Shown here: one piece after another, positions 9,072-38,706 of the stretch
Position numbering within the stretch: position 1 is the first letter of the stretch
How the letters are laid out: each line of letters begins with the position of its first letter
Assembly (NCBI GenBank): GCA_017413085.1
Contig: JAFPVC010000005.1
Location: 52,225 to 116,224 of the forward strand
From: Prevotella sp.
GTDB taxonomy: Bacteria; Bacteroidota; Bacteroidia; Bacteroidales; Bacteroidaceae
DNA length: 64,000 nt
Direction of reading: 5' to 3'
Program-made: the position numbers and the translations under genes
The notes under the pieces: generated by a model
Databases searched by the model: none
The model's input: only the letters and a program-made list of their open reading frames with translations
What the model was told of the DNA's origin: nothing

Positions 9072-11213
9072 TTATTCAACCCAGAATTCATAAACGTTAC
9101 CAATCTCGTTGCCATGGAAGTCAAGAGCAGAATACTCAACGGTATGCTTACCCTTAGACATGGTGCCAACCTTGATTACGCGGCCTTCAGGATCGTTACC
9201 GTCGTAAATCTTACCTGGCTGGTCGTCAATCCTCACATACTTCTTGTAGACAGGAACGAGCAGGCCATCGGTGTAAGTGATTGGGTAGATAGTGATATCA
9301 CCGCTGAACACCTTAGTTGCAACACCCTGAATACCACAAGCGGTATAGCGGTTACCGGCACGGATGATGAGTTTCGGCTTGAAGAGCTCAGGAATAGCAT
9401 TGTAAATCTTCAGACCTGCCTGGTTGAGCTGATCAAGGTAATCGTGAATCATATCCTTGACACCACCGTCAACAACATAGTCCTTATAGTGCTCATTAGC
9501 CTCCTCGACAATCTTGACAACATTGTTAATGAGTGACTCGTAGTCAGTCATAGCAACGTATGGCAGGAATGTCTCAAGCTCATCCTCATCAACGATGAAG
9601 GTAACTTCCTTGAACTCCTGAGACTTCTTAACACGGTACTCAACGGTAACCTTAATCTCACCAGTCTCGCTGTAGTTGTTACCCTTATAATCAATGCTCT
9701 TGATACGACGCTCCTCAAGTTTAGCGAGCTTGCCATCAACATAATCTTCAGGATACATCTCCAGAATCTTGTTGGTAGCCTTGTCGATAATCTTGTCAAT
9801 CAGCTTGACAGCATTCTTGTACATAGGCAGAGAAGAAGCTGGGAAGCGCTCGTCAACAGCAGTGAATGCAAGAGGCTTAACAGCGCAAGCAGCCATCTTA
9901 TACTCAGAAGATACAGAGTGCTCGCCGAGGCTGTCTGTCCAAGAAGTCTTCACGCCGAGAGCGTCGAGACCTACGTTAGAAACTGCACTGTAAAGGTTGC
10001 CAGCGATATTAACGATACCAGCCTTAATCTCATCAACATTGCCTGACTCAACGAAGCCCTTGAGAGACTTAGCAACCTTAGCAGCGTCGAAGCCGAGGCT
10101 GAGGTCATTGCGTGAGCCGTTGGCAACCTGCTCAACTACAGACTTCTCAAGTGTAGCAGGAACCTCATAGAAACCATTGTTGGCAGCACGAGTGTAACCC
10201 ATCTGGAGAACCTTGTCAGACTTCTTAGCCTCACCGAGCTTAACGCCGCTCTCAACATCCTGAGAGTTTACAAGCTGCAGTGAACCCTCTGCCAGTTTGT
10301 CGAAGTCCTCGTCAACTGGGTTGATAGTCAGATAGATCTTACCAAGATTACCTTCGCCCTCGTTGAAGAAGAGCTGTCCAGCCTTATAGTTATATGTCTC
10401 GTCAGCACTCTCAAATGCGCTTGGGAATGAACCAGAAGAAGCAGCCTTACCATAGTAAGCTACAAGCATATTGGTATTCACGCCAAGCAGTGAAGAGTTG
10501 AATGAGCCTATGTTAGAACTGTAAACCTGCTGGATGAGCACACCGGTGATGAGCTTCTGGCGTGCGTCCTTCAGAGAATCAATCTGATTCTGCAGAGAGT
10601 CAGTCACATTAGCCAGAGAGTCAACAGCAGCCCACAAAGAATCAATCTGTGGCTTCAGCACCTTGGTGTTGATAGAGTCGACTGCATTCTGCAGCTGCTC
10701 AACCGTAGCATAGTTCTTCAGAGTGTCGGTCAGAAGCTCTATCTGCTTCTCAAACACGCTGTCAGCCTTGGCAAAAGTAGTAGAGTCCTTCTCTGCCTTA
10801 GCCATAATCTCAGAGACAACGTTCTCGATGGTCTTGCCAGTCTTCTCACCGTCAATCTCGAAGTTGTTCAGACGGTCAATAATCTGGTCAACACGCACGA
10901 GCAGCACACCCCTCTTCATGGTCTTCTCCTCGTCAAGCCACTGCGTTGTATCGCCAATGACCGAATCAACGTAATGCTGGAGGTTATCCAGCTTCTCCTT
11001 ACACTGGCAACCCTCACCATGATTACACTCACACGACTTCATGTCTGCCAGTTTCTGACGCAGGGCAGCAATGTCGTCAGCAAGTTTCTTAGCTACGGTA
11101 GCACTTGTGGCCAACTGATTTGCATAGTTGTCCTCGTCGTAATCCTTACAAGAGGTAAGCACCAACGAGCCTACAAATGCCATAGCAAGCATAAACTTTG
11201 TAGTAATTTTCAT
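9072..11213 (-). CDS. Large coiled-coil lipoprotein
   Basis: Surface or periplasmic lipoprotein of 713 aa. The signal peptide ends in the lipobox VLTSC (Cys22). Residues about 40-230 are a long Asp/Leu/Gln-rich predicted coiled coil with heptad-like repeats (VDSINTKVLKPQIDSLWAAV, then DSLQNQIDSLKDARQKL). A tight CECNHGEGCQC cluster near residues 60-70 could bind metal or form disulfides. The remainder is an all-beta or mixed domain with no recognised motif, ending in HTVEYSALDFHGNEIGNVY, which reads like an Ig-type strand pair. Similar long coiled-coil lipoproteins are common in Bacteroidales. The biochemical role is unknown. Confidence 0.87.
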   Translation of the reverse strand: MKITTKFMLAMAFVGSLVLTSCKDYDEDNYANQLATSATVAKKLADDIAALRQKLADMKSCECNHGEGCQCKEKLDNLQHYVDSVIGDTTQWLDEEKTMKRGVLLVRVDQIIDRLNNFEIDGEKTGKTIENVVSEIMAKAEKDSTTFAKADSVFEKQIELLTDTLKNYATVEQLQNAVDSINTKVLKPQIDSLWAAVDSLANVTDSLQNQIDSLKDARQKLITGVLIQQVYSSNIGSFNSSLLGVNTNMLVAYYGKAASSGSFPSAFESADETYNYKAGQLFFNEGEGNLGKIYLTINPVDEDFDKLAEGSLQLVNSQDVESGVKLGEAKKSDKVLQMGYTRAANNGFYEVPATLEKSVVEQVANGSRNDLSLGFDAAKVAKSLKGFVESGNVDEIKAGIVNIAGNLYSAVSNVGLDALGVKTSWTDSLGEHSVSSEYKMAACAVKPLAFTAVDERFPASSLPMYKNAVKLIDKIIDKATNKILEMYPEDYVDGKLAKLEERRIKSIDYKGNNYSETGEIKVTVEYRVKKSQEFKEVTFIVDEDELETFLPYVAMTDYESLINNVVKIVEEANEHYKDYVVDGGVKDMIHDYLDQLNQAGLKIYNAIPELFKPKLIIRAGNRYTACGIQGVATKVFSGDITIYPITYTDGLLVPVYKKYVRIDDQPGKIYDGNDPEGRVIKVGTMSKGKHTVEYSALDFHGNEIGNVYEFWVE

Positions 11214-11491: not shown

Positions 11492-11505
11492 CAGAAGAAA
11501 TGAAG

Positions 11506-11609
11506 GATTGAAAGATTGAAAAATTGAAAAATTGAAGAATTGAAGAATTGAAAGATTAGAGAATTGAAGGATTAAAGAGTTAAAGGGTTAAAAGATTGAA
11601 TAATTGAAA
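11506..11609 (+). repeat. 8-nt tandem array in the purB leader (13 units)
   Basis: Thirteen consecutive 8-nt units, consensus (A/G)(A/G)TT(G/A)AA(A/G), in strict register with no indels (11506-11513, then every 8 nt to 11609). Units vary at positions 1, 2, 5 and 8 while TT and AA stay fixed. The array starts 15 nt after the -7 box and ends 27 nt before the start codon. Confidence 0.85.
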
Positions 11610-11635
11610 AACGAAAACATTTAATAAGATAAGAC

Positions 11636-16497: not shown

Positions 16498-18138
16498 CTA
16501 TGGGAGGACGGCACGAACCGAAAGTCCTTCGAAACGGAAATAATCGCTATTCCATGTGGCGTAGTCTGAATCGAAGAGCAGTACATCTAAAACAAGAGTC
16601 GGTTCGGTATCTTCGAGCGTTGTCGACCAATAGTTACCGCGCAAGCCTACGTAGGAGTCGAAGTCCGTGTCGACGTGTGAGCCTGCAACCGGAAGGAAAA
16701 TGTGGGCAGTGTTGGCGATGTTATAACTTCCAATTGGAGTGTAGTTGTTGTTTGCGGTCTTTTGCTTTCCTTTGTCGTCATTGTTGGCATCCTCAACCTT
16801 ATATACTATGTAGCCTTTCACACCTGTATTGTTGTAATCCTCCGTCCATTCCCAATAGCAACCGATGAGGAGTTCGTAAATTTCGTCACCAGTCGGCATG
16901 CGCCATGCACCGTGCCAGTTCATGTGGGCTGCGTCATCGCTTGCATCAAGAGTTGATTTATTGTCAATGACTGGACCATATTCACTGCTTGTGTTGTATT
17001 TGGTCAGGCTGGTGCCTGAGCCGTTACACCATTTGTATGTTTCCCAACTATAATCATTCTTCGGACTGATTTCGCCCCATGCAAAGTAGTCACCGTACCC
17101 TTCTGGGGTCGTTGCGCCGACATTGCAGGTTGCCCACTTCGTACCACTGGTTAGGCCGAGGTCAACGTAGTCGTGCGTGCTGCGCACCCAAGTCACGTGT
17201 GTCTGGGTCTCTTCCACCGTACCCATGTTCACTACGCTGTGGCGAGAGAAAGCAGAGGTCGTACCGTTATAGGAGCGTACCATCGTGGTCACCTCTTTGT
17301 TTTCACTGTCAATAGACGTGCAGCTCATGGTGAAACCTTCCTCAAGCGTGCCGGGCAGGATGGCGATGAGATATGTGCCGGCGGCTATCTTCGTACCCTC
17401 AACCGCAGGTACGAGGCTCACCGTGCATGAAGGAGAGGTGGGTATGACCCTGGAAACTCCGTCGGCGCCTACCTCCGCCATGAAGCCTCCGGCGATGCTG
17501 TCGCCACCGTTGGCGGTGAAGGTTATCTTGTCGTATGGCTCCGTTGTTGTCACCTTGACGAAGGCGCAGACATGCTTGAACTCACCGAGGCTGAGGTCTT
17601 TCTCCGTGTTCTCTATCTTATCCGCATTGTCATTGCGTGCGGTCATGATGGCTGCCAGTGGGTCGAAGCCGTCAGGGGTGGCTGTCTGCACATCAGGCAG
17701 TATGAGACCGTCTATGTATGTTGCGGATTCGTCTGCCTCGTCTGCGCTTATCATGTTGTCTTGTACCAAATCTGCAGCTGACAGTATCGTGGCCTCAGGC
17801 TCAAGGGGATATACTGCGCAGTATTTCTTCGGTTCGGTGACAGTGATGGTGCCTTCGAACTCGCCTGTTGTTTCGCCTGCACCTTTGGCAAGTTCAAACG
17901 GACAAGCTACTCCTGCACCGTCGAACACAGTGATGGCGTCGCCTTCCTGCCACACCACGTTGGCGCCGTCAACGGCAGTACGTGTGGCGTTGCTCTCCTG
18001 GCTGGCAGTAAAGGTTACTTTGTACTCACCCTTGACAGGTGCCTGGGCTTCTGTCAGTTCGATGTCGTTGCCACAAGAGGCAAGCGTGAGCATGGCGCAC
18101 ACTGCTGCCATGCCGCTATATAACTTGAATTGTTTCAT
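16498..18138 (-). CDS. Surface lipoprotein with a FISUMP-type C-terminal domain
   Basis: Exported lipoprotein of 546 aa. The signal peptide ends in LTLASC (Cys22). Residues about 40-320 resemble the fimbrillin-like surface modules of Bacteroidales (TAVDGANVVWQEGDAITVFDG; MVRSYNGTTSAFSRHSVVNMG). The C-terminal 220 residues are a Fibrobacter-type major paralogous (FISUMP) domain, shown by YVDLGLTSGTKWATCNVGA, YGDYFAWGEI, WHGAWRMPTGDE and NYWSTT. FISUMP domains are common on Bacteroidetes surface proteins but their ligand is not established. The only close neighbour is a small protein encoded upstream on the same strand. Confidence 0.87.
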   Translation of the reverse strand: MKQFKLYSGMAAVCAMLTLASCGNDIELTEAQAPVKGEYKVTFTASQESNATRTAVDGANVVWQEGDAITVFDGAGVACPFELAKGAGETTGEFEGTITVTEPKKYCAVYPLEPEATILSAADLVQDNMISADEADESATYIDGLILPDVQTATPDGFDPLAAIMTARNDNADKIENTEKDLSLGEFKHVCAFVKVTTTEPYDKITFTANGGDSIAGGFMAEVGADGVSRVIPTSPSCTVSLVPAVEGTKIAAGTYLIAILPGTLEEGFTMSCTSIDSENKEVTTMVRSYNGTTSAFSRHSVVNMGTVEETQTHVTWVRSTHDYVDLGLTSGTKWATCNVGATTPEGYGDYFAWGEISPKNDYSWETYKWCNGSGTSLTKYNTSSEYGPVIDNKSTLDASDDAAHMNWHGAWRMPTGDEIYELLIGCYWEWTEDYNNTGVKGYIVYKVEDANNDDKGKQKTANNNYTPIGSYNIANTAHIFLPVAGSHVDTDFDSYVGLRGNYWSTTLEDTEPTLVLDVLLFDSDYATWNSDYFRFEGLSVRAVLP

Positions 18139-18385
18139 TGTGCATTGATATTTTTACAAATAAAATTAATGAAAATTCGTGGGCATTCATGATAATTATA
18201 TGTTTTCTTTTTAACACGAATGGCCATTAATTAACCACGAATTATTCATAAATTATTATTATTGTTGTTGTTATTTTAACTACGAATTAAACGAATTTTA
18301 CGAATTATTCAGTGCTGTACTCCGCATGGTAATTCGTTTAATTAGTGAAATTCGTAGTTTTAAAATATATCATTGTATTGTTTCT
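18139..18385. repeat. Intergenic ACGAATT-type inverted repeat
   Basis: 247 bp without a gene. AACTACGAATT at 18278-18288 and AATTCGTAGTT at 18350-18360 form the outer arms of a long imperfect hairpin whose inner parts are also ACGAATT/AATTCGT words. A second imperfect inverted pair lies at about 18174-18230. It may form a structured leader for the lipoprotein gene. Confidence 0.6.
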
Positions 18386-18574
18386 TTATCCTCCGAGTCC
18401 TCCGCTGGTCCAGTCGAAGTTGCCGGGGTTGAGCGGTTCGGTGCCGAACTGGTTTGTACCGTTGTTGTTTGGGTCGTTGGGGTCAATGACATTTCCAACG
18501 CTCGCAGCGAGGATGTCCTGTGCCTCGAAGGCCGTGAGCCGCACCTCGGGGCGGATAAAAATCTTTTTCTTCAT
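18386..18574 (-). CDS. Small protein, M-x-x-x-(Y/F)-I-x-P family, 62 aa
   Basis: Function unknown. The sequence starts MKKKIFIRPEVRLTAFEAQD, continues ILAASVGN, then has a low-complexity tail of Asp, Asn, Pro and Gly ending TSGGLGG. Two other small proteins here (43642, 46837) share the pattern: a basic start, (Y/F)-I-x-P at residues 5-8, a hydrophobic stretch, (I/V/L)(L/M)-x-A-(S/H) near residues 20-25, then an acidic or Gly-rich tail. It has no classical signal peptide. It lies between an AAA-ATPase gene (68 nt upstream) and a FISUMP lipoprotein, all on the minus strand. The shape suggests a leader plus core peptide, but no modifying enzyme is adjacent. Confidence 0.7.
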   Translation of the reverse strand: MKKKIFIRPEVRLTAFEAQDILAASVGNVIDPNDPNNNGTNQFGTEPLNPGNFDWTSGGLGG

Positions 18575-18617
18575 TTTAATTGTTCAGTTATGTGTCTATT
18601 ATTAAAGTGGGTTAATT

Positions 18618-18649
18618 AGCAATCCTTCAACTCTTCAATCCTTCAATTT
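18618..18649 (-). repeat. 8-nt array overlapping the AAA-ATPase stop codon
   Basis: Four 8-nt units of the TTGAA type (minus strand) spaced exactly 8 nt. The stop codon and the last codons of the AAA-ATPase gene (EKN) lie inside the array. Confidence 0.7.
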
Positions 18650-20208
18650 TTCTCTATCAAGTATTTCTCTATGGTGCGGATGTCCTTGCTGAAGTTGATG
18701 CCGACCATGTAGGTGGTCTTTTCATCAAGTGTGTACGGCAGCAGATACTGCCTGTCCTTTATCTGCTGCAGGGCTTCCTCTGCCGTGCCGTTGAGCTTGA
18801 ACTCCATCACGTAGCGGTACTGCGGGGTCTCTATCAGCAGGTCTATGCGGCCGTCGCTGGTCTTGTATTCGCTCTGCGTGTAGAAACTGAGCATCTTGAA
18901 CACTACCCAAATGACGTTCTGGTAGTTGCCCTCGCGGTCAAGTTCGGCATCATACGGCGCACTGGCGAGCAGTGACTTCAGGCGCTTGCAGAACTGTTCG
19001 GGGTTGCCACTCTCCACGTCGTCGGCAAAAAGCTCAACGTCGAAGACGGAGCGTTTCTTCTCCTCGGTCTTGTAATTATCCAGATAGAACGGTGCGAGGT
19101 ATTTCACGAAGCCTTCCTCCACCTCTTCATTCGGGAAACCGAGTATGTATTTCTTGAATCGCTCCTTATAGCCCTTTATCGTCAGGTAGCCGCTTTGGTA
19201 TATCACTGGTATCGGGTCGCTCGACTCTGCGTCAATAGAGTTCAGCACGTCGGCAGTCACCTCCGCCTTCGACATCTGTTCAAGGCTGTAGTGGTGCCGG
19301 CGCAGCAGGGTGACGAGGTATGTCGGCGTGCCGGTCTCAAACCAATAGCTGCGGAAGATATAGTTACTGAAAGTGTTCAGCACACTGAAAGGATTGTATA
19401 TGCCGCCCTTTGAGAACTCGTTGAAGTGGTAGCCGTCATACATCTTCTTCATTTTAGCTATGCACTCCTCGCGTGTCAGTCCGTTGTTTTCTGCCAGTTC
19501 GTCTATCTGCTTGTCGAAGACGCTGAGCAGTTCCTGCTCCGTGATGCCGCAGATGTCATGGTACTTGGGATACATCGAGATATCCATGAGGTTATTGAGG
19601 TCGCTGAACACGCTGACTTTACCGAACTTTGTTACTCCGGTGAGCATGGCAAACTTGATGCAGGCATCCATTGACTTCAGTGCACCGTAGAATCCCTTGA
19701 GCGTGCCGCGGAACTCGCTTTGCAGCGTCTCATTACCTATGGCCTGCAGCATCGGCTTGTCGTATTCGTCAACGAGGATGACGACGCGGCGGCCAGTCTT
19801 TTCGTATGCAGCACGGATTACTTTCTCAAAACGCATGCCGAACGGCAGGTCCGGCCTTGCACAACCATACATTGCCTCCCACTCACTGAGAGAGTCATCA
19901 AGTTTTTTCTCCAACACCTCTGCCTTGTCATACTTATTTGTGTTCAAGTCAAGGTGCATGATAGGGTGTTCCGCCCAGTCCCAGTCGTCCTTCTTGTCAA
20001 TGGCCAGTCCCTTGAACAGTTCGCGCTTGCCCTGAAACAGAGCCTTCAGCGTGGAGATGAGCAGTGACTTGCCGAAGCGGCGCGGATGCGAGAGGAAGTA
20101 ATACGAACCTTCACTGACAAGGCGGTAAACATGCTCCGTCTTGTCAATATAGAGATATCCGTCAGTGCGAATCTTCTCAAAGTCTTGTATGCCAATAGGT
20201 AGTTTCAT
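18643..20208 (-). CDS. AAA-ATPase-like protein with a PD-(D/E)XK C-terminal domain
   Basis: 521-aa member of the AAA-ATPase-like plus PD-(D/E)XK nuclease family that is abundant in Prevotella and related gut Bacteroidales. The N-terminal part has the family opening PIGIQDFEKIRTDGYLYIDKT, a Walker A-like HPRRFGKSLL (about residues 41-50) and Walker B VVILVDEYDKPM (about 145-156). The C-terminal nuclease-like domain shows GRIDLLIETPQYRYVMEFKLNG (about 453-474), with the D and E-x-K residues of the nuclease core. The cellular role of the family is not established; mobile or defence roles have been suggested. It has its own promoter and an 8-nt array in its leader. Confidence 0.9.
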   Translation of the reverse strand: MKLPIGIQDFEKIRTDGYLYIDKTEHVYRLVSEGSYYFLSHPRRFGKSLLISTLKALFQGKRELFKGLAIDKKDDWDWAEHPIMHLDLNTNKYDKAEVLEKKLDDSLSEWEAMYGCARPDLPFGMRFEKVIRAAYEKTGRRVVILVDEYDKPMLQAIGNETLQSEFRGTLKGFYGALKSMDACIKFAMLTGVTKFGKVSVFSDLNNLMDISMYPKYHDICGITEQELLSVFDKQIDELAENNGLTREECIAKMKKMYDGYHFNEFSKGGIYNPFSVLNTFSNYIFRSYWFETGTPTYLVTLLRRHHYSLEQMSKAEVTADVLNSIDAESSDPIPVIYQSGYLTIKGYKERFKKYILGFPNEEVEEGFVKYLAPFYLDNYKTEEKKRSVFDVELFADDVESGNPEQFCKRLKSLLASAPYDAELDREGNYQNVIWVVFKMLSFYTQSEYKTSDGRIDLLIETPQYRYVMEFKLNGTAEEALQQIKDRQYLLPYTLDEKTTYMVGINFSKDIRTIEKYLIEKN

Positions 20209-20262
20209 TCTTTCAATTCACAATGCATAATTCACAATGCACAATTACCATGCGGTAAAAAC

Positions 20263-20294
20263 TTCAAGTCTTCAATTTTTCAATTCTTTAATTC
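20263..20294 (-). repeat. 8-nt array in the AAA-ATPase leader (4 units)
   Basis: Four 8-nt units of the TTGAA/TTAAA type on the minus strand, CAA or TAA marks at 20265, 20273, 20281 and 20289, beginning about 10 nt after the -7 box. It is the same arrangement as in purB and greA but shorter. Confidence 0.75.
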
Positions 20295-20303
20295 TTCTTG
20301 GTG

Positions 20304-20334
20304 CAAAGTTACGATTTTTTAATGAAACAACAAA
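20304..20334 (-). promoter_or_regulatory. Bacteroidetes-type promoter for the AAA-ATPase gene
   Basis: On the minus strand TTTG (20334-20331), 19 nt, then TAACTTTG (20311-20304). Both are exact consensus matches, 95 nt before the start codon. Confidence 0.78.
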
Positions 20335-20367
20335 ATTATAACTAAAAAATTGAAGGATTGAGATTTC

Positions 20368-20439
20368 TTCAACTCTTCAATCCTTCAATTCTTAAATTCT
20401 TCAATCCTTCAACTCTTAAATCCTTCAATCCTTCAATTT
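20368..20439 (-). repeat. 8-nt tandem array, 9 units, not attached to a recognised gene
   Basis: Nine consecutive 8-nt units (TTCAACTC, TTCAATCC and variants) in strict register, preceded by one or two units in the opposite orientation at 20344-20362. No start codon of a recognisable gene follows on the minus strand before the AAA-ATPase promoter. Confidence 0.75.
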
Positions 20440-20717
20440 TATATTGTTCTATTTCTCCACTATCAAGAAAACTCATTTTAAGCGCAAGAAACAAAGTCGG
20501 TGGACACGCACCCCATAGAAGGGGTTAAATCGCGTAGAGGTGCCTTAAAACGCTTTTTTAAATGCACAATGCATAATGCATAATGCACGATTATGCCATA
20601 CAGGGTAAAAAATGCGAGATATGCGAAACAGTTATGCATAATGAATTATGAATTAAGCACTAATCAGTACCAAATTACGGTGTAATCGTGGCTTGATTGC
20701 ATTGTAATCAGGTACAA

Positions 20718-20744
20718 ATTACACTGTAATTAGGGCCTGATTAC
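20718..20744 (-). repeat. Dispersed 27-nt element, copy 1
   Basis: 27 nt identical to the reverse complement of 48037-48063. It sits in a longer block (20658-20744) of TAATCAG and ATTACNGTGTAAT words that can pair with each other. The second copy, 27 kb away, has the same kind of surroundings. Confidence 0.75.
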
Positions 20745-20884
20745 TGCGCGTTAAGAAAACTTTACATTTTTAACATTTGTCTATTTGTCGAAAATCAGTT
20801 GTTTCTTGCCCAAACAAAAAAAGTTTTTTCTCTTTTATTTTTGCTTTTTTCTATGAAATATTATGCAGTTTCACAGAATTTTTA

Positions 20885-20892
20885 TACCTTTG
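20885..20892 (+). promoter_or_regulatory. -7 promoter element before the Rhs fragment
   Basis: TACCTTTG, an exact -7 match, followed by GCAC as at other starts here. No TTTG lies at the right -33 distance. It lies inside the longest possible Rhs frame (from 20863), which supports the later start at 20950. Confidence 0.55.
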
Positions 20893-20949
20893 CACCCGTT
20901 TTGCCGATACGACGAAGGCCGAAAAATAGCACTGATAAAGTACGACAAT

Positions 20950-22158
20950 ATGAACAACCCGAGCAGAATACAGTTTACTAATGGCAACGTGACGAAATAT
21001 GTTTACTCCGCCACAGGCGAGAAACTGCGCACCGTCCACCAGACTGCTGCGCCAAACATCACCGTGGCAATGGGTACAGCGCATGAACTGACTGCTTCGG
21101 AGTTACTGTACACAGACTCTACAGACTATTACTGTGGTGGCAAGTTGACAGTGAAGAACGGACGTATGGACAAGTATTTCTTTGATGGTGGCTATGCGCA
21201 GGCTACAGTTGATGAAGCAAATAATTCAGATAATTTTGCATTCTTCCACTATAACTCCGACCACCTCGGTAACGTGCGCGAGGTGATAGACGAAAAAGGC
21301 GACGTAGTACAGATTACTAACTACTACCCTTTCGGCACGCCATACAGTGCGGAGGATTTTGCTACGCATAATCCCGACCAACAGGACAGGAAGTACAACG
21401 GCAAGGAGTTTGACAGTACGCATGGACTCAACACTTCCGACTACGGTGCACGTCAATACTGCTCATTATTCGGCCGTTGGGACAGAATGGATCCATTGTG
21501 TGAGAAATACTACTCTGTAAGTCCGTATGCGTATTGCCATAACAATCCTGTTATGTTGACAGACCCTAACGGAGAGGATGATTATTTTGACTTCTATGGC
21601 AATTACCTTGGAACAAATAAGGAAGAAACGGATTATATTTACGTTACCGATGATTTCAATAGGTTAGAAGATGGTCGTTGTGTCGTTGGAATTGACACAA
21701 GGGTTGCATTAGCAGATGCTGATTTATCTGCAAAGGCATATTCTAATATCTTTACAAGCATTCTTGATAGAATGCCCGATGTGGATACAAGTAAACTACA
21801 TAATGAGAAAATATCTGTGTCAAAGATAGCAGATGACCCCCAGGATGACGATTTTTTCAATGACGCAAACAACGAAATTGATTTTGAGCATAATCGTTTT
21901 GCAACGACATCACCAGATCACTCTGATGCTCACATCACTGCATACATAACTTCAAAAAGTAAAAATTATTACAATACGGTTTCTGATGTAAGAAACATGT
22001 TGGGTGTACATGAATTCATAAGACACTATCAAGAAAACATGGACGATGGTTACAATTTGTATCAAAGCCTAAAAGAACATCATTCAACATGGGATAGAAC
22101 TTCTGATTTATACAAGAAACATGTAGAGTACATGATAGATTACTACAAAAAAAGATGA
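20950..22158 (+). CDS. Rhs-core fragment with a putative zinc-metalloprotease toxin tip
   Basis: C-terminal part of an Rhs/YD-repeat protein (402 aa from ATG 20950). The core is recognisable from SRIQFTNGNVTKYVYSATGE, then YNSDHLGNVREVIDEKGDVV, YYPFGTPY, KYNGKEFD, YGARQYCSLFGRWDRMDPL, and the conserved core end YYSVSPYAYCHNNPV-x5-DPNG. The large N-terminal Rhs barrel is missing and no signal peptide is seen, so this is a truncated or orphan copy. After DPNG about 200 residues form a variable tip with HEFIRH (residues 354-359), an HEXXH zinc-peptidase motif, and EHH about 20 residues later that could supply a third ligand. The tip is more A/T-rich than the core. The stop overlaps the next gene by 4 nt. 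Toxin activity is inferred. Confidence 0.75.
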   Translation: MNNPSRIQFTNGNVTKYVYSATGEKLRTVHQTAAPNITVAMGTAHELTASELLYTDSTDYYCGGKLTVKNGRMDKYFFDGGYAQATVDEANNSDNFAFFHYNSDHLGNVREVIDEKGDVVQITNYYPFGTPYSAEDFATHNPDQQDRKYNGKEFDSTHGLNTSDYGARQYCSLFGRWDRMDPLCEKYYSVSPYAYCHNNPVMLTDPNGEDDYFDFYGNYLGTNKEETDYIYVTDDFNRLEDGRCVVGIDTRVALADADLSAKAYSNIFTSILDRMPDVDTSKLHNEKISVSKIADDPQDDDFFNDANNEIDFEHNRFATTSPDHSDAHITAYITSKSKNYYNTVSDVRNMLGVHEFIRHYQENMDDGYNLYQSLKEHHSTWDRTSDLYKKHVEYMIDYYKKR

Positions 22159-22766
22159 TGACGAAAAAAACAAAATATGTTACACTGATGTCAATTACAA
22201 TTTTTTCTGTAATTGCCGTATATTGTTTTTTCTATAATAAAGGTAGAAAAACGCCAATTTTGGAAGCTCGATTACTAGTGGTTAAGGATAACAAAATGTG
22301 GGCTGATTCATTAGATAGTGTTGAAAATCGCAGGAATGAAGACAACAGCCACAGGGAAATCTATTTTCGATACGAAATAGGAAATGATAGCGAAGATACA
22401 TTATATTTTCCTTTGGCTTCAAATACTGAAATGTCAAGTAAATCTCATATTTCTGTAAAGATAAAAGATATGAACAATACTATTCCACAATTATCTTTTG
22501 TTTGGAAAAACAACTCATATAAAATCGCGCCACATGAAGTTATAGATATATCATTTACTGTATGTAAAATATTCACAGTGGAAGAAGAAAGAAAAAATAA
22601 TACTAACATATACGATTTGCTTCCTAGATTTCAAATGGAATATAAACTTGATTCTGTAGATATTCGGCAAAATAATCTGCCTGTGCCAAACATCAGGTTC
22701 AATAATGATACAACAGGAATAAAAGTCCGTTTTACTTCAATGAATGATAGAACAGGATGCTTATAG
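22155..22766 (+). CDS. Membrane-anchored protein, candidate immunity protein 1
   Basis: 203 aa, no named family recognised. One N-terminal transmembrane segment or uncleaved signal (about residues 8-27) precedes a soluble domain predicted outside the cytoplasm. Its ATG overlaps the stop of the Rhs-tip gene (ATGA), the tight coupling usual for toxin-immunity pairs. It is paralogous to the next gene; both contain (L/I)EARL, DSL-(D/S)-x-(V/L)ENR, IYFRYEI or ILFKYEI, a D-T-L-(Y/F)-F-P-L block, (F/L)TVE-(E/D)-E and NNDTTG(I/V)K. Low GC relative to the housekeeping genes suggests transfer with the toxin tip. The immunity role is inferred from position only. Confidence 0.75.
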   Translation: MMTKKTKYVTLMSITIFSVIAVYCFFYNKGRKTPILEARLLVVKDNKMWADSLDSVENRRNEDNSHREIYFRYEIGNDSEDTLYFPLASNTEMSSKSHISVKIKDMNNTIPQLSFVWKNNSYKIAPHEVIDISFTVCKIFTVEEERKNNTNIYDLLPRFQMEYKLDSVDIRQNNLPVPNIRFNNDTTGIKVRFTSMNDRTGCL

Positions 22767-22802
22767 ATGTGTAGTAAATAGCATTTAATATTATTTAAAA
22801 CG

Positions 22803-23417
22803 ATGAATAAAAAGAAGAAAAATATAATAATTATATCTTTAGTACTTCTTGTTTTGTTAATAGCTTATTGTATCTGGACATATTGGGAGTTTAAGATCTA
22901 TACACTTGAGGCCAGATTAATTAGTATAGAAGACTATAGATTTTATTCAGATTCGTTGGACAGACTTGAAAACAGAAAGAAAAAAGACATAAGTCAAAGA
23001 AAGATTCTTTTTAAATATGAAATTAAGAATGAATATAATGACACTCTCTTTTTTCCCTTGCAGTCAGAGTTTGAACACAGTAAATCTCATATTGAAGTAA
23101 ATTTCAATGAATATGGAAAAAAGCAACCATTAGTCATTGATGTAAAGAAAAGAAAAAGTACAAATATGATCCCACCAGGAGGAATAATTACCTTATCTTT
23201 TTTTATAGAAAATTTCTTAACAGTGGAAGATGAGCAAAAAAAGAACGTGGATACATATAAAATAATTTCTACAATTCATACAAAATACGTTTTGGACTCC
23301 ACAGATATCTGTTCCACAGATTTTCCTGTACCAAAGATACATTTCAACAATGACACAACTGGCGTTAAATTCTATCTCGTTCCATCAGGAAAAATCCTTC
23401 GTGTTACACTTGAATAA
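22803..23417 (+). CDS. Membrane-anchored protein, candidate immunity protein 2
   Basis: 204-aa paralogue of the preceding gene with the same layout: a Lys-rich start, one hydrophobic segment (about residues 8-27), then a soluble domain. Shared blocks are LEARLISIEDYRFYSDSLD, KYEIKNEYNDTLFFPLQSE, FLTVEDEQ and PVPKIHFNNDTTGVKF. The two proteins differ widely outside these blocks, as expected for immunity proteins matched to different toxins. This copy may be the partner of a lost tip, because the downstream Rhs core copy is truncated. It is 36 nt after the first and very A/T-rich. Confidence 0.75.
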   Translation: MNKKKKNIIIISLVLLVLLIAYCIWTYWEFKIYTLEARLISIEDYRFYSDSLDRLENRKKKDISQRKILFKYEIKNEYNDTLFFPLQSEFEHSKSHIEVNFNEYGKKQPLVIDVKKRKSTNMIPPGGIITLSFFIENFLTVEDEQKKNVDTYKIISTIHTKYVLDSTDICSTDFPVPKIHFNNDTTGVKFYLVPSGKILRVTLE

Positions 23418-23441
23418 ACATGACTTTATACTAATGTGTAT

Positions 23442-23790
23442 ATGAATACCCCGAACAGAATACAGTTTACTAACGGAAACGTGACGAAGTATGTGTACTC
23501 CGCCACTGGCGAGAAACTGCGCACCGTCCACCAGACTGCTGCGCCGAATATCACCGTGGCTATGGATACAGCGCATGAACTGACTGCTTCGGAGTTACTG
23601 TACACAGACTCTACGGACTACTATCTTGGCGGTAAGCTCACCGTGAAGAACGGACGTATGGACAAGTATTTCTTTGATGGCGGATATGCGCAGGCAAAGA
23701 CAAACGAAACCACACTGACAGATAATTTCTCTTTGTATTACTACAATTCTGACCACCTGAGATATCAGTTCTCATATCTTTCTCATTTAA
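23442..23790 (+). pseudogene. Second, truncated Rhs-core copy
   Basis: From ATG 23442 the sequence closely follows the upstream Rhs core (20950 onward), roughly 90% identical by eye for the first 240 nt, through GGYAQA, then more loosely to YYNSDHL near 23757. Homology then stops where the other copy continues GNVREVID. The frame runs on to 23957, but only by reading through a hairpin terminator (23795-23832) and the greA promoter (23902-23933), so those residues are not a real domain. It is best read as the remnant of an Rhs locus left by cassette recombination or deletion. The end coordinate is approximate. Confidence 0.75.
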
Positions 23791-23794
23791 AAAC

Positions 23795-23836
23795 AATCGG
23801 CAGTGCATATTTGAAGCATGCACTGCCGATTTTACA
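23795..23836 (+). terminator. Hairpin terminator after the Rhs remnant
   Basis: A 14-bp perfect stem, 23795-23808 with 23818-23831 (core CGGCAGTGCAT), followed by TTTTAC. It lies between the Rhs remnant and greA. Confidence 0.75.
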
Positions 23837-23901
23837 TTTTTACAAATTGAATGAAACAAACACAAAACACTTGCCAAACAAAAGAAATATTTGGGAAATG
23901 A

Positions 23902-23933
23902 TTTGGGTGTTTCAGAATTATTTCATACCTTTG
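23902..23933 (+). promoter_or_regulatory. Bacteroidetes-type promoter for greA
   Basis: TTTG (23902-23905), 20 nt, TACCTTTG (23926-23933). An exact consensus pair, 168 nt before the greA start, directly followed by the 8-nt array. Confidence 0.8.
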
Positions 23934-23943
23934 CAGCGAAAAA

Positions 23944-24047
23944 AATTGAAGAATTGAAGAATTGAAGGGTTGAAGAGTTGAAAAGTTGAAAAATTGAAGG
24001 ATTGAAGAGTTGAAGAGTTGAAGGGTTGAAGAGTTGAAAAATTGAAG
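23944..24047 (+). repeat. 8-nt tandem array in the greA leader (13 units)
   Basis: Thirteen 8-nt units of (A/G)(A/G)TTGAA(A/G) in perfect register, beginning 11 nt after the -7 box. The unit count (13) and length (104 nt) equal those of the purB array, although the unit order differs. Confidence 0.87.
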
Positions 24048-24100
24048 CAGATCGGGGGAGATAAAGGACTGCTTTTTGATAAGGAAATAATAAAAGACTA

Positions 24101-24565
24101 ATGGAATACATGTCACAAGAGGGCTATGACAAGCTCGTAGAAGAATTACGCCAGTTGGAAACTGTGGAACTGCCGCGCGTGCGCGATGCCATTTCCGAGG
24201 CACGCGACAAAGGCGACCTAAGTGAGAACTTTGAGTATCACGCCGCAAAGCGTGAACAGGCACGCCTGCTCAGTCGCATACGCTATAAGCAGCGCGTGCT
24301 GCAGTTTGCAAGGGTGGTAGATACCACGCGCCTCGCAGACGACAAGGTGGGACTGCTCAGCAAAGTGGAACTGACCAACGTGACACGCGGTATGCGCACT
24401 ACATACACCATAGTAAGCCCGCACGAGGCAAACATGAGCGAGGGAAAGATTTCTATCAAATCGCCAATAGCACAGGCACTGCAGGGCAGGAAAGCCGGCG
24501 ACGTGGTGACAGTGCGCGTGCCAGCTGGCACCATGCAACTGCGCATTGAGAGCGTCAGCCTTTAA
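24101..24565 (+). CDS. greA: Transcription elongation factor GreA
   Basis: Binds RNA polymerase and stimulates cleavage of backtracked transcripts. The N-terminal coiled coil opens MEYMSQEGYDKLVEELRQLE and carries the tip residues in ARDKGDLSENFEYHAAKREQ (about residues 37-56), with acidic D and E. The C-terminal FKBP-like domain includes YTIVSPHEANMSEGKISIKSPIA-type sequence (about 107-128). The 154-aa length is normal. It has its own consensus promoter and a 104-nt repeat array in a 165-nt leader. It is convergent with the DUF721 gene, with only 17 nt between the stops. Confidence 0.95.
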   Translation: MEYMSQEGYDKLVEELRQLETVELPRVRDAISEARDKGDLSENFEYHAAKREQARLLSRIRYKQRVLQFARVVDTTRLADDKVGLLSKVELTNVTRGMRTTYTIVSPHEANMSEGKISIKSPIAQALQGRKAGDVVTVRVPAGTMQLRIESVSL

Positions 24566-24582
24566 GGGTGCATGGGGGAGAA

Positions 24583-24873
24583 TCAATAAACACGGATATC
24601 GGTGATAATCTGCGCCCCTACGCTGTCATTAAGTTGCTGCGTCAGGGCAGTGCGACGCATCTGCAGTTCGGAACGCATGGCAGGACTGGAAATCTTCACC
24701 CACAAGGTCTGGTTGCGTATCTGCTTCTCCTCGGTATACCGGCTCACCGTCTCGCCGGCCACGACATCCCACTGCTCCAGCAGACGATGCTGAAGCCAAG
24801 GTGTCTCCAGTCCGTTAGCGCGGAGGAAGGAACGCAGGAGTTCAGATATTTCACTCGGATGTCGCTTGAACAT
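24583..24873 (-). CDS. DUF721 (DciA-like) protein
   Basis: 96-aa member of the DUF721 family, to which the replicative-helicase-loading factor DciA belongs. It begins MFKRHPSEISELLRSFLRAN and has the conserved WDVVAGETVSRYT (about residues 35-47) and LWVKISSPAMRSELQM (about 56-71). It lies 14 nt downstream of recF, the usual position for this family in Bacteroidetes and consistent with a replication or repair role. Direct helicase loading is an inference from the family. It is the last gene of the ompH-to-DUF721 leftward set. Confidence 0.88.
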   Translation of the reverse strand: MFKRHPSEISELLRSFLRANGLETPWLQHRLLEQWDVVAGETVSRYTEEKQIRNQTLWVKISSPAMRSELQMRRTALTQQLNDSVGAQIITDIRVY

Positions 24874-24887
24874 GAAGCCTAAATAAA

Positions 24888-25991
24888 TTATGTATTGAAA
24901 AACTCGCCGCCCTTTACGCGGAAAATCCTGTAGTCGACCTGTGATGCCGACAGGATGCTGTCGAGGTGGTCGCGGTTTGTGTCGGTAATGAAAATTTGCC
25001 CGAAGCCGTCGCCGCCCACCATGTCGACTATCTTCTCCACACGGCCAGCATCCAGCTTGTCGAATATATCGTCGAGCAGAAGCAACGGAGTTGTCTGGCT
25101 GATAGTCTTGCGCAGGAAGTCAAACTGTGCAAGTTTCAAAGAAATCACGTAAGTCTTTGTCTGTCCCTGACTGCCTTCGCGTTTCATCGGCCATCCACCG
25201 ATAAGCATCTCGAGGTCGTCGCGGTGTATGCCGTGCAGCGTATATCCCACGGCACGCTCACGCACCCTGCCGCCCTGCAACTGTTCCAGCAACGGCCCGC
25301 GCTGACAGTGGGAGACATACCGCAGTGACACTTGTTCTTTCTCACCGCTTATAGATTTATATACACTGTTGAAAACGGGAACGAACTGCTCTACAAAGTT
25401 GCTGCGCCGCCGGTATACCTCCTCGGCAGTGCGTGCCATTTCCTCCTCCCACAGCGACAGGAGCATAGGGTCTGGCTCCTGCTCCATCTTTAGCAGGGCA
25501 TTGCGTTGCTGCAAAGCCTTGTTGTAACCCACAAGATGGTCAATATAGGCATTGTCGTACTGCGATATCACCACGTCGAGCAAATGCCGGCGCTCCTCGC
25601 TGCCGCCGCGTGCGAGCAGCACGTCGTCGGGCGATGATATTATAAGCGGCACCATGCCTATGTGTTCGGCCATGCGGCGGTAGGCCTTGCCGTTGCGCTT
25701 AAACTGCTTTTTCACTCCCCGTTTCATGCCGGCATAGATATTCTCCTCAGTCTCGCCGTCGTCGTGGGTGTATGCACCCTTGAGCATGAAGAAGTCTGCA
25801 TCGTGACGCATCATCTGCGAGTCGATGTTGGAGAACATGGAATGTGTGAAACTAAGGAAATATATGGCATCAAGCAGATTCGTCTTGCCCTCGCCGTTGT
25901 CGCCTATGAAACAGTTTATGCCGGGCGAGAACTGCAGTTCCGCCTCAGCAATGTTCTTGTAGTTGAGTATGGAGAGAGACTTTAAAATCAT
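24888..25991 (-). CDS. recF: RecF: DNA repair and recombination ATPase
   Basis: SMC-like ATPase that helps RecOR load RecA at gaps. The start MILKSLSILNYKNIAEAELQ is diagnostic. Walker A is FIGDNGEGKTNLLDAIYFL (about residues 31-49), followed by a signature region near 270-290 (GQTKTYVISLKLAQFDFL). Walker B is TPLLLLDDIFDKLDAGR (about 305-321). The 367-aa length matches the family. Its upstream spacer is a 120-nt 8-nt repeat array (15 units) with no promoter box in it, so transcription probably comes from the DUF4421 side. Confidence 0.95.
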   Translation of the reverse strand: MILKSLSILNYKNIAEAELQFSPGINCFIGDNGEGKTNLLDAIYFLSFTHSMFSNIDSQMMRHDADFFMLKGAYTHDDGETEENIYAGMKRGVKKQFKRNGKAYRRMAEHIGMVPLIISSPDDVLLARGGSEERRHLLDVVISQYDNAYIDHLVGYNKALQQRNALLKMEQEPDPMLLSLWEEEMARTAEEVYRRRSNFVEQFVPVFNSVYKSISGEKEQVSLRYVSHCQRGPLLEQLQGGRVRERAVGYTLHGIHRDDLEMLIGGWPMKREGSQGQTKTYVISLKLAQFDFLRKTISQTTPLLLLDDIFDKLDAGRVEKIVDMVGGDGFGQIFITDTNRDHLDSILSASQVDYRIFRVKGGEFFNT

Positions 25992-26000
25992 AGTTCACAT

Positions 26001-26120
26001 TTCAATTCTTCAATTTTTCAACCCTTCAATCCTTCAATTCTTTAACTCTTCAATTTTTCAATCTTTCAATTCTTTAATTCTTTAACTCTTCAATTTTTCA
26101 ATCTTTCAATTCTTCAATTC
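26001..26120 (-). repeat. 8-nt tandem array before recF (15 units)
   Basis: Fifteen 8-nt units (minus strand TTGAA/TTAAA type; plus strand marks every 8 nt from 26003 to 26115) fill the gap between the DUF4421 stop and recF start. Several 24-nt blocks recur, for example 26049-26072 and 26089-26112, showing expansion by duplication of groups of units. Confidence 0.85.
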
Positions 26121-27251
26121 TTAAAAGTTGAATCCCACATAGAAATACAGGGAGCCGAGCATGTTGCGGGTCATAACCAGACCGTTGCCATACTGATAAT
26201 AGAAAATATAGCCCTGCGTGCCGAAGAACCACGGGCCGTTGTTGTAGAGCAGCACGGTGCGCAGCGTGCCGTTGAAGGCAATGTTCTTCTTGCCGAAGTC
26301 GGTAATCGTCTTCAGTATGTTGCTCTCGCTCTCATCATCACTATCGTTTTTTGTTGCGGTGGCGGTATGCTGAAGCAGGTAGCCTATGGAACCTGACAGT
26401 TCAGCCCCCAACAGCCAGTTGCGTGCAAACACCCAGTTGTAGCCGTAGCCTCCAGTCAGTGAGAACTCGTCGTTTTTCTGCTTGCCATACAGTTTGTTGG
26501 TATCGTAGTCGGTGTCGTTAATGTCGTTCAGCAGACTGGCAAACTTGCTCCAGTTGATGCTCATGCGGTTGTGAGCATACGATGCGCCAAGTATAAGCGA
26601 ACCAGCGGAGCGCAACTGTCGGTTGGCCTGACTGTAGGCCGCCTGGTGGGAGAAGTGCTTGTAGTTGGTGACATAGTAGAAGCTGACGCGCGTCATGCCA
26701 ACCTTAATGCCGTCGAACGGTTCACCATGCAGCAGTGTAGAGTAGTCTTTCCCCTTCATGGTGAAGTTGTGTATGTTGTAGTTTCCGCCCACGCGACGGT
26801 AGAACAAGTCAAGGCCGAAGGCAGCCGAGTAGACCGATGCGCTAAGGTCTGTGTCATCATCATTCATGAATACCGACTTGAGGTCGATATTGTAGCCGAG
26901 AAAGGCGAAACGCCACCCGAAGAACGGACCTATGCGCGTGCGCCATTTAGGTGTCACACGCAGGTTAAAGTCCTCGCCGGCATCAAGCTGGAACTGCTCA
27001 AAGCGGCTTGACAACTGCACCTCGGCACACCAGTTATAGCGATCTTGCGTATCAACATAGTTAGTGTCGCGCGGTGGTGAAAACACCCCGTCGAGGAATT
27101 TGTAAGCCCGTTTGAACCAGCTCTGTTTCTCCTGGGGCTTAATAGTCGTAGTATCCGCATACACAGAGACGACACCTGCCGTGTCAGTCTGAGCATTCAC
27201 GGCAAGCATCGTCACCATATATAATATATACGTTGTAAACGACCTTTTCAT
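26121..27251 (-). CDS. DUF4421 outer-membrane protein
   Basis: 376-aa exported protein of the DUF4421 type, found in Bacteroidetes. The signal peptide ends near residue 20 (MLAVNAQ). The conserved family stretch is YVDTQDRYNWCAEVQLSS (about residues 64-81), LRVTPKWRTRIGPFFGWRFAFLGYNIDLKS (about 97-126), then GLDLFYRRVGGNYNI. Many alternating strands and a C-terminal aromatic (YFYVGFNF) indicate a beta-barrel. The substrate is not known. Its start directly abuts the end of the oxidoreductase gene upstream, implying co-transcription, and its 3' end merges into the 8-nt array before recF. Confidence 0.87.
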   Translation of the reverse strand: MKRSFTTYILYMVTMLAVNAQTDTAGVVSVYADTTTIKPQEKQSWFKRAYKFLDGVFSPPRDTNYVDTQDRYNWCAEVQLSSRFEQFQLDAGEDFNLRVTPKWRTRIGPFFGWRFAFLGYNIDLKSVFMNDDDTDLSASVYSAAFGLDLFYRRVGGNYNIHNFTMKGKDYSTLLHGEPFDGIKVGMTRVSFYYVTNYKHFSHQAAYSQANRQLRSAGSLILGASYAHNRMSINWSKFASLLNDINDTDYDTNKLYGKQKNDEFSLTGGYGYNWVFARNWLLGAELSGSIGYLLQHTATATKNDSDDESESNILKTITDFGKKNIAFNGTLRTVLLYNNGPWFFGTQGYIFYYQYGNGLVMTRNMLGSLYFYVGFNF

Positions 27252-38283: not shown

Positions 38284-38706
38284 ATGATGAAAAAAACTAT
38301 ACTGACACTCATTTCTGCCATTGCTTGTCTGGCTGGTGCCAACGCTGAAGAGAAAACGGCTATCAGCGTGTGGGTTAACGATGCGGACGCACAAACGTAT
38401 AACATCTCTTCCCAACCGGTCATCAAGCATACTGACGGCAAGCTGCAACTCAAAGTGAATGGCGGCACGCTTGGCTCATACGAGATTTACAACGGCATGA
38501 AAATTACCTTTACCAAGGAATCGCAGTTGGGCGACGTAAACGCTGACAGTACCATCACCATGGCCGATGCCAACAGCATAGTAAACAAGTATCTGAATGG
38601 TGAAGCAGCCAACATCAATGTTACGGCTGCCGACTACAACAAGGACGGTCAAATCACTATGGCTGATGCCAACAGCGTGGTCAACGCATACCTTACGGAA
38701 CAGTAA
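38284..38706 (+). CDS. Small secreted dockerin-like protein
   Basis: 140-aa exported protein. MMKKTILTLISAIACLAGANA is a signal peptide. The mature N-terminal 65 residues (KTAISVWVNDADAQTYNISS, IYNGMKITFTKE) have no recognised family. The C-terminal 60 residues are a dockerin-like module with two calcium-loop repeats, DVNADSTITMAD and DYNKDGQITMAD, each followed by ANSIVNKYL or ANSVVNAYL. These match the module ending the upstream PL1 enzyme (DVNNDGSVTMADANAVVN). It has no enzymatic domain, so it may be an adaptor or scaffold piece, but no cohesin-type partner was recognised. It has its own promoter and terminator. Confidence 0.87.
   Translation: MMKKTILTLISAIACLAGANAEEKTAISVWVNDADAQTYNISSQPVIKHTDGKLQLKVNGGTLGSYEIYNGMKITFTKESQLGDVNADSTITMADANSIVNKYLNGEAANINVTAADYNKDGQITMADANSVVNAYLTEQ

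What the first reader, a model, noticed from the sequence alone, without database searches (positions are those of the whole stretch)
20950..23790. Orphan Rhs tip cassette: core fragment, HEXXH tip, two paralogous candidate immunity genes, second truncated core
Two direct copies of the same Rhs core (roughly 90% identical over the first 240 nt by eye) flank a toxin-like tip and two related membrane proteins. This is the layout expected after tip replacement by recombination in Rhs loci. The tip has HEFIRH and later His residues, so a zinc peptidase toxin is possible. The immunity candidates differ from each other strongly outside shared blocks.
Basis: partly seen in the sequence, partly recalled or inferred. 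Interest (0 to 1): 0.72.

Follow-up and report, generated by a model that had tools for sequence, protein, structure and literature searches.

The report
Stored spare toxin-tip and immunity cassette
In a Prevotella-type genome, a detached tip of a bacterial weapon protein sits with two related, probably protective genes between two pieces of the weapon's backbone; such spare-part cassettes are known from other bacteria, but this tip family and its partner genes are not yet catalogued in the family libraries we searched.

Summary
The layout is real: an Rhs core fragment with a 192-aa tip, two paralogous membrane-anchored candidate immunity genes, and a second truncated core (90.6% identical over 256 nt). 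Best reading: an orphan Rhs tip/immunity module (known kind) and the stump of a former tandem array. Same-strand cores 1.0-4.5 kb apart occur in 23 of 48 genomes listed by one search; here the spacing is 2,492 nt. Correction: HEFIRH is HExxxH, not HExxH. The tip family is uncatalogued, a distant sister of Pfam Tox-MPTase2 (HExxH). Its gene is followed by one immunity family in 12 of 13 loci with near-complete tips and 5 of 8 partial or divergent copies. The relatives' immunity proteins look like lipoproteins, which suggests a periplasmic target. Against an active enzyme: the window copy lacks the residue that most relatives offer as third metal ligand. Unlike textbook orphans it lies away from the main rhs gene, and a promoter motif sits 16 nt upstream; the genome's other orphan has the same motif 18 nt upstream. 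Toxicity, immunity and recombination are inferred, not shown.

The parts
20885..20893 (+). TACCTTTGC, a motif of the Bacteroidetes housekeeping promoter type (type recalled), 16 nt before Rhs homology starts
   Evidence: 5 in the window against 0.53 expected; others lie before greA and the tRNA genes; 155 in the genome against 38 for the pattern read backwards
20910..21579 (+). core 1, 3' fragment of the Rhs core without N-terminus
   Evidence: 86.3% to the main rhs gene over 644 nt, 88.6% to the other orphan over 683 nt; homology begins at 20910-20911
20863..22158 (+). orphan Rhs ORF; likely start ATG 20950, because ATG 20863 lies upstream of the promoter motif
   Evidence: no signal-like N-terminus
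21580..22155 (+). tip domain, 192 aa, HExxxH family
   Evidence: (pLDDT 89.5, pTM 0.89)
22009..22026 (+). HExxxH motif of the tip
   Evidence: 12 of 12 tips in A4
22155..22766 (+). candidate immunity 1: N-terminal membrane anchor plus beta sandwich; its start overlaps the tip stop (ATGA)
22803..23417 (+). candidate immunity 2, paralogue of immunity 1 (sisters, support 97/95)
23440..23758 (+). core 2, truncated second core without tip
23795..23831 (.). strong hairpin after core 2, possible terminator (listed by the scan on the minus strand only)
   Evidence: -22.6 kcal/mol for 23770-23850, z -5.17; 2 terminator-like sites in the region against 2.1 in shuffles

Best explanation
It is a dispersed orphan Rhs tip/immunity module. 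A detached 3' end of an rhs gene (core fragment plus tip) with its immunity gene, here duplicated, is kept at a site away from the main rhs gene. Core 2 is the stump of the next module of a former core-tip-immunity array, cut off at 23758. Shown: parts, order, core homology, mosaic cores, and association of this tip family with this immunity family. Inferred: (1) recombination through the core can load the tip onto the main rhs gene; (2) the tip is a metallopeptidase-type toxin that acts in the periplasm, because its immunity family is lipid- or membrane-anchored; (3) the unit is transcribed from the motif at 20885, so immunity is expressed while the unexported tip is harmless or silent. This copy of the tip may be weakened.
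For: Core identity to the main rhs gene (L007) and to the other orphan (L008). Mosaic: core 1 is nearer L008 in 20910-21189 (267/280 against 240/280), nearer L007 in 21190-21264 (63/75 against 48/75), nearer L008 again after that (285/324 against 268/324), with 32 runs among 113 sites and 0 of 20,000 shuffles as few. Relatives of the tip end long Rhs ORFs (1,044-1,863 aa) in 7 of 11 named loci and shorter ORFs in the other 4. Immunity homologue right after the tip in 12 of 13 loci with a near-complete tip by HMM; of these L028, L037 and L038 were not in the HMM, and L022's protein equals L021's; L030 is the exception. Of 8 further partial or divergent copies 5 have one (G252, two in G292, G307, G373) and 3 do not (G347, G315, G301:C33). 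12 of 12 non-window immunity proteins in A5 match a loose lipobox pattern. Core arrays in 23 of 48 listed genomes.
Against: The main rhs gene is not upstream; it is on another contig. Toxicity is untested, and the window tip lacks the usual third-ligand residue and differs at one Asn that the other 20 of 21 tips share. No significant fold match for the tip or Imm1. The genome is 62 contigs and 79% complete, so a misassembly at repeated cores is possible. No T6SS VipB was found (inconclusive), so the delivery route is unknown.
Confidence: 0.82

Rival explanations
1. Decaying relic: a former rhs locus or array that lost its N-terminus and next tip and now drifts, with no function beyond chance.
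For: Core 2 is cut and tipless. The tip deviates at conserved positions. Broken relatives exist, such as a frame-broken copy in G373 and split or short pieces in G252 and G292.
Against: Tip, Imm1 and Imm2 are three intact ORFs with an ATGA overlap between tip and Imm1. A promoter motif sits right upstream. HExxxH is kept.
Confidence: 0.25
2. Immunity store: the unit is kept for the two immunity genes, which protect against incoming tips of non-kin; the tip is a passenger.
For: Two immunity genes per tip, with at least two separate duplications in the family. Immunity homologues without a tip match on the fetched stretch of 3.0-3.5 kb in L016, L017 and L019. Promoter motif. Polyimmunity loci are known (PMC3482391, passages).
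Against: The tip ORF is still open. Nothing shows that the two proteins neutralise foreign tips.
Confidence: 0.35
3. Flanking cores mark a mobile cassette that excises or inserts as a unit by recombination between the direct repeats.
For: Direct repeats flank tip and immunity genes. The other orphan is on a separate contig.
Against: I saw no integrase-like ORF among those listed around the cassette, but made no search for one. The empty site could not be tested, since the greA neighbourhood is not conserved in the six regions fetched. Ordinary arrays give the same layout.
Confidence: 0.12

Closest known systems
Orphan rhs-CT/rhsI and cdiA-CT/cdiI modules of Enterobacteria (PMC3967940, PMC3150448; passages read)
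   Same: 3' fragment of a delivery gene with conserved sequence, toxin tip and downstream immunity gene; homology to a main gene that permits fusion; several modules in a row
   Different: Not downstream of the main gene; promoter motif and in-frame ATG present (those papers say orphans usually lack translation initiation signals); two paralogous immunity genes; no toxin test here
Tox-MPTase2, PF15638 (Zhang et al. 2012, PMC3482391; passages read)
   Same: C-terminal tip of Bacteroidetes Rhs proteins; similar HE...H and TT/TS..K block; 5 of 12 family members match, some weakly
   Different: HExxxH instead of HExxH; the window copy has no match; other neighbours in place of this immunity family
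HExxxH metallopeptidases: M49 dipeptidyl peptidase III and the tubulin carboxypeptidases TMCP/MATCAP (PMC10499314; passages read)
   Same: HExxxH instead of HExxH
   Different: No significant fold match: MATCAP chains appear among the Foldseek rows only at E 4.4-7.2, and the first-ranked row has E 1.4; no third ligand identified in the window copy
Polyimmunity loci (PMC3482391; passages read)
   Same: Adjacent paralogous immunity genes in one direction
   Different: Only two genes, still attached to a tip

Membership tests
orphan Rhs tip/immunity module | fragment homologous to a full rhs gene, without N-terminus or export signal | tested here: met
[quoted passage not shown]
   ORFs of 1,044-1,863 aa in 7 of 11 named loci
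orphan Rhs tip/immunity module | linked immunity gene directly downstream | tested here: met
   by association only: 12 of 13 loci with near-complete tips, 5 of 8 partial or divergent copies
[quoted passage not shown]
   main gene on contig C18, window on C20; PMC3967940 says rhs loci often hold such pairs downstream of the main pair, so this is a usual, not an absolute, feature
orphan Rhs tip/immunity module | lacks translation initiation signals (usual) | tested here: inconclusive
   in-frame ATG 20950 and promoter motif 20885; expression unknown
orphan Rhs tip/immunity module | toxic tip neutralised by its own immunity protein | not testable with these tools
   bench test needed
Tox-MPTase2 PF15638 | score over the curated cut-off | tested here: not met
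   window tip: no match at E<=1; own genome: no match at E<=0.001
Tox-MPTase2 PF15638 | HExxH | tested here: not met
   HExxxH in the window; of 9 rows over the cut-off, 7 aligned and L099 have HExxH, and L101 does not cover the motif
Tox-MPTase2 PF15638 | homologous domain | tested here: inconclusive
   5 of 12 relatives match at E<=1, best E 4e-6; hhalign probability 72, E 3.4e-5 over 52 columns
zinc metallopeptidase | two His and Glu of the motif plus a third ligand | tested here: inconclusive
   motif kept; likely third-ligand column His in 16 of 21, neighbouring Asp in 4 of 21, neither in the window

The most novel reading that the evidence does not exclude
Promoter-captured, dispersed orphans: in this Prevotella-type genome both orphan rhs fragments begin within 20 nt downstream of a housekeeping promoter motif. 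The unexported tip is then made harmlessly (or has lost activity) while the anchored immunity proteins guard the periplasm, so the locus is a standing immunity bank and a tip reserve at once.
Probability: 0.22. Interest if true: 0.55.

Novelty: new variant of a known kind. Interest (0 to 1): 0.38.

Why it matters
It links an uncatalogued tip family (HExxxH) to an immunity family with no Pfam match better than E 0.04. In Zhang et al. 2012 the table row for Tox-MPTase2 lists no immunity protein (passages). It also shows orphan tips away from the main gene in a Prevotella-type genome, and it makes testable whether orphan units are transcribed for their immunity genes.

Tried and rejected
Empty site at greA: only greA itself matched (tblastn of 14 window genes, E<=1e-6) in six regions fetched, six of the seven best greA matches, so neighbours are not conserved and the test is uninformative. 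Remnant of an rhs N-terminus upstream: none seen; main rhs homology starts at 20911. Fold look-up: no PDB match at E<=0.001 for tip or Imm1; sequence search of the PDB gave 0 matches for the tip and one chance-level match (E 0.13) for immunity. NCBIfam gave only sub-cut-off matches for the immunity proteins, best E 0.0038, 17.5 bits against a cut-off of 42. Defence system: no PADLOC match for four proteins. RNA family: none in 18000-26500. T6SS VipB: none in the 79%-complete genome, no proof of absence, and Bacteroidetes versions may be too divergent. Same immunity family beside HExxH Tox-MPTase2 tips: not found in L093-L101 and L103; the L102 hits belong to the G059 HExxxH tip itself. I had no tool for co-folding tip and immunity.

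Counting caveats: of the 21 tips, 12 came by similarity alone, so 12 of 12 for HExxxH is unbiased. The other 9 were picked by a scan for HE..H or HE...H, so their motif is partly by construction. Rows left out: L036 (same tip as L023), L039 (the HE-bearing piece of that gene is in as L045), L047 and L050 (matches do not cover the motif), and G373 (L041, L046), a frame-broken copy whose motif is changed. L027 is G059, and L021 and L022 are near twins. The array count uses the 150 listed rows; more rows were not listed. The runs test ignores selection along the gene; the three other runs tests of that call gave 0, 0.013 and 0 as shares of shuffles. The promoter coincidence is post hoc.

Full report
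1. What is there. The window lies on contig C20 of a 2.83 Mb, 62-contig, 79%-complete genome. Between an AAA-ATPase/PDDEXK gene on the minus strand (18643-20208) and a GreA-like gene (24101-24565; name recalled from its sequence) lie, all on the plus strand: a TACCTTTGC motif (20885), an Rhs core fragment from 20910, a tip from 21580 to 22155, two paralogous ORFs (22155-22766, 22803-23417), a second core from 23440 to 23758, and a hairpin at 23795-23831. The stop of the tip ORF overlaps the start of Imm1 by ATGA. In the set used for the first immunity ORF likewise starts at the last base of the tip ORF in L020, L023, L025, L027 and L029.

2. The genome's other Rhs loci. Three loci hold the core. 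C18 (L007) is full length with an N-terminal signal-like segment (by eye) and DUF6443, a dockerin type I domain inside the protein and another tip. C2 (L008) is a 623-aa fragment with a dockerin, a metzincin-like tip (Peptidase_M10, E 8.7e-5, just under the cut-off) and a small downstream ORF. The window is the third. Core 1 is 86.3% identical to C18 over 644 nt and 88.6% to C2 over 683 nt; core 2 is 88.7% identical to C2 over 319 nt and 81.0% to C18 over 321 nt. Core 1 switches allegiance twice along its length, with far fewer runs than shuffles (32 runs in 113 informative sites, 0 of 20,000 as few). This fits past exchange between cores, though uneven selection could add to it.

3. Tandem arrays are common in this order. 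A search of 119 genomes with the core found matches in 56. Among the 150 listed rows, from 48 genomes, 49 same-strand neighbour pairs lie 1.0-4.5 kb apart, in 23 genomes (the own one included), with a median of 2,259 nt. The window spacing is 2,492 nt. Core 2 is therefore most simply the beginning of the next module, now cut off.

4. The tip. Homologues occur in 6 of 199 genomes, the own one included, and by profile in 15 of 299 genomes of the genus, the own one included; 11 named loci were fetched. In 7 of the 11 the tip ends an Rhs ORF of 1,044-1,863 aa; the others are 340, 528, 701 and 990 aa. The AlphaFold2 model is confident (pLDDT 89.5, pTM 0.89) with the motif in a long helix, but no solved structure matches at E<=0.001. 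Pfam Tox-MPTase2 matches 5 of 12 family members (best E 4e-6) but not the window copy. Of 9 rows over its cut-off in the genus, 8 cover the motif and have HExxH. Profile comparison gives probability 72 and E 3.4e-5 over 52 columns. So the tip family is best called a sister of Tox-MPTase2, not a member. HExxxH metallopeptidases are known (M49, TMCP/MATCAP; PMC10499314, passages).

5. Evidence against activity of this copy. In 21 aligned tips the column that most likely gives the third metal ligand (inference) is His in 16 and has an Asp next to it in 4; the window copy has neither. It is also the only one without the Asn that the other 20 share. The ORF is nevertheless open. Broken relatives exist elsewhere. 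Whether the window tip is active is therefore open.

6. The immunity genes. An HMM of the 14 aligned proteins finds a homologue directly behind the tip in 12 of 13 loci with a near-complete tip; L028, L037 and L038 were not used to build it, and the exception is L030. Of 8 further partial or divergent copies, 5 have one (G252, both copies in G292, G307:C100, G373) and 3 do not (G347, G315, G301:C33); L047 and L050, which lack the motif part, show none. All 12 non-window proteins of A5 match a loose lipobox pattern; the two window proteins do not and look membrane-anchored. Imm1's model is an N-terminal helix plus a beta sandwich (pLDDT 81.6) without a PDB match at E<=0.001. No Pfam family matches any of the 14 members better than E 0.04. 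The window pair are sisters (support 97/95), while the pairs in L023, L025 and L027 stem from a separate duplication. Tandem duplication has thus happened at least twice. An anchored, outward-facing immunity protein suggests that the tip acts in the periplasm (inference).

7. Transcription. TACCTTTGC occurs 155 times in the genome against 38 for the pattern read backwards and 5 times in the window against 0.53 expected, including 11 nt before the repeat array that precedes greA and about 40 nt before the tRNA genes. One copy sits 16 nt before core 1. In L008 one (10225-10233) sits 18 nt before the start of homology to the main gene (10206), and none is found in the 19 kb around the main gene. 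At the genome's rate a sense copy within 25 nt is expected with probability about 7e-4 for each locus (my arithmetic); this is post hoc and intergenic sites favour promoters. A generic sigma-70 scan found no more sites than shuffles (19 against 15.5, sd 4.2), but that scan is not made for this promoter type. If the motif is used, ATG 20950 is a fitting in-frame start.

8. Literature. Orphan modules and their fusion to the main gene by homologous recombination are described in PMC3967940 and PMC3150448 (passages read), and tip cassettes, polyimmunity loci and Tox-MPTase2 in PMC3482391 (passages). A search for MPTase2 found only that paper. Searches for Prevotella with Rhs and polymorphic toxin (12 of 12 listed), Rhs orphans with Bacteroidetes (20 of 27 listed), Bacteroidales Rhs with lipoprotein immunity (10 of 59 listed) and dockerin with Rhs and Prevotella (1 of 1) gave listings only; no title or abstract start in them describes this family. 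The library lacks most subscription journals.

9. Verdict. A known kind of thing in a new variant: a dispersed orphan tip/immunity module with an HExxxH tip family and a newly associated anchored immunity family. The array-stump and association parts are well supported; toxin activity, delivery and expression are inferred.

Noticed in passing
window 11494-11611, 20262-20449, 23946-24047, 26001-26122: Arrays of an 8-nt unit (TTGAAGAN) stand in intergenic regions; those at 20262, 23946 and 26001 are oriented with the gene that follows them. Three units in a row occur 145 times (overlaps counted) in the genome and 0 times for the pattern read backwards.
   Followed up: partly
L007:8015-11569 and L008:8333-10204: A dockerin type I domain lies inside the Rhs proteins of this genome (Pfam E 2.1e-13 and 6.1e-12); related stretches lie at window 37938-38117, the end of the ORF 34257-38126, and at 38530-38697.
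   Followed up: partly
L008:7785-10204: Second orphan Rhs fragment with a metzincin-like tip (HEIGHSVGLQH) and a downstream small ORF; TACCTTTGC just upstream.
   Followed up: partly
L016, L017, L019: Immunity homologues without a tip match on the fetched stretch.
   Followed up: no
window 18643-20208: AAA-ATPase-like gene with a C-terminal PDDEXK_9 domain.
   Followed up: no
L023: A MAG labelled Bacillota carries the Prevotella-type Rhs tip and immunity pair; probably a mislabelled or mixed record.
   Followed up: no
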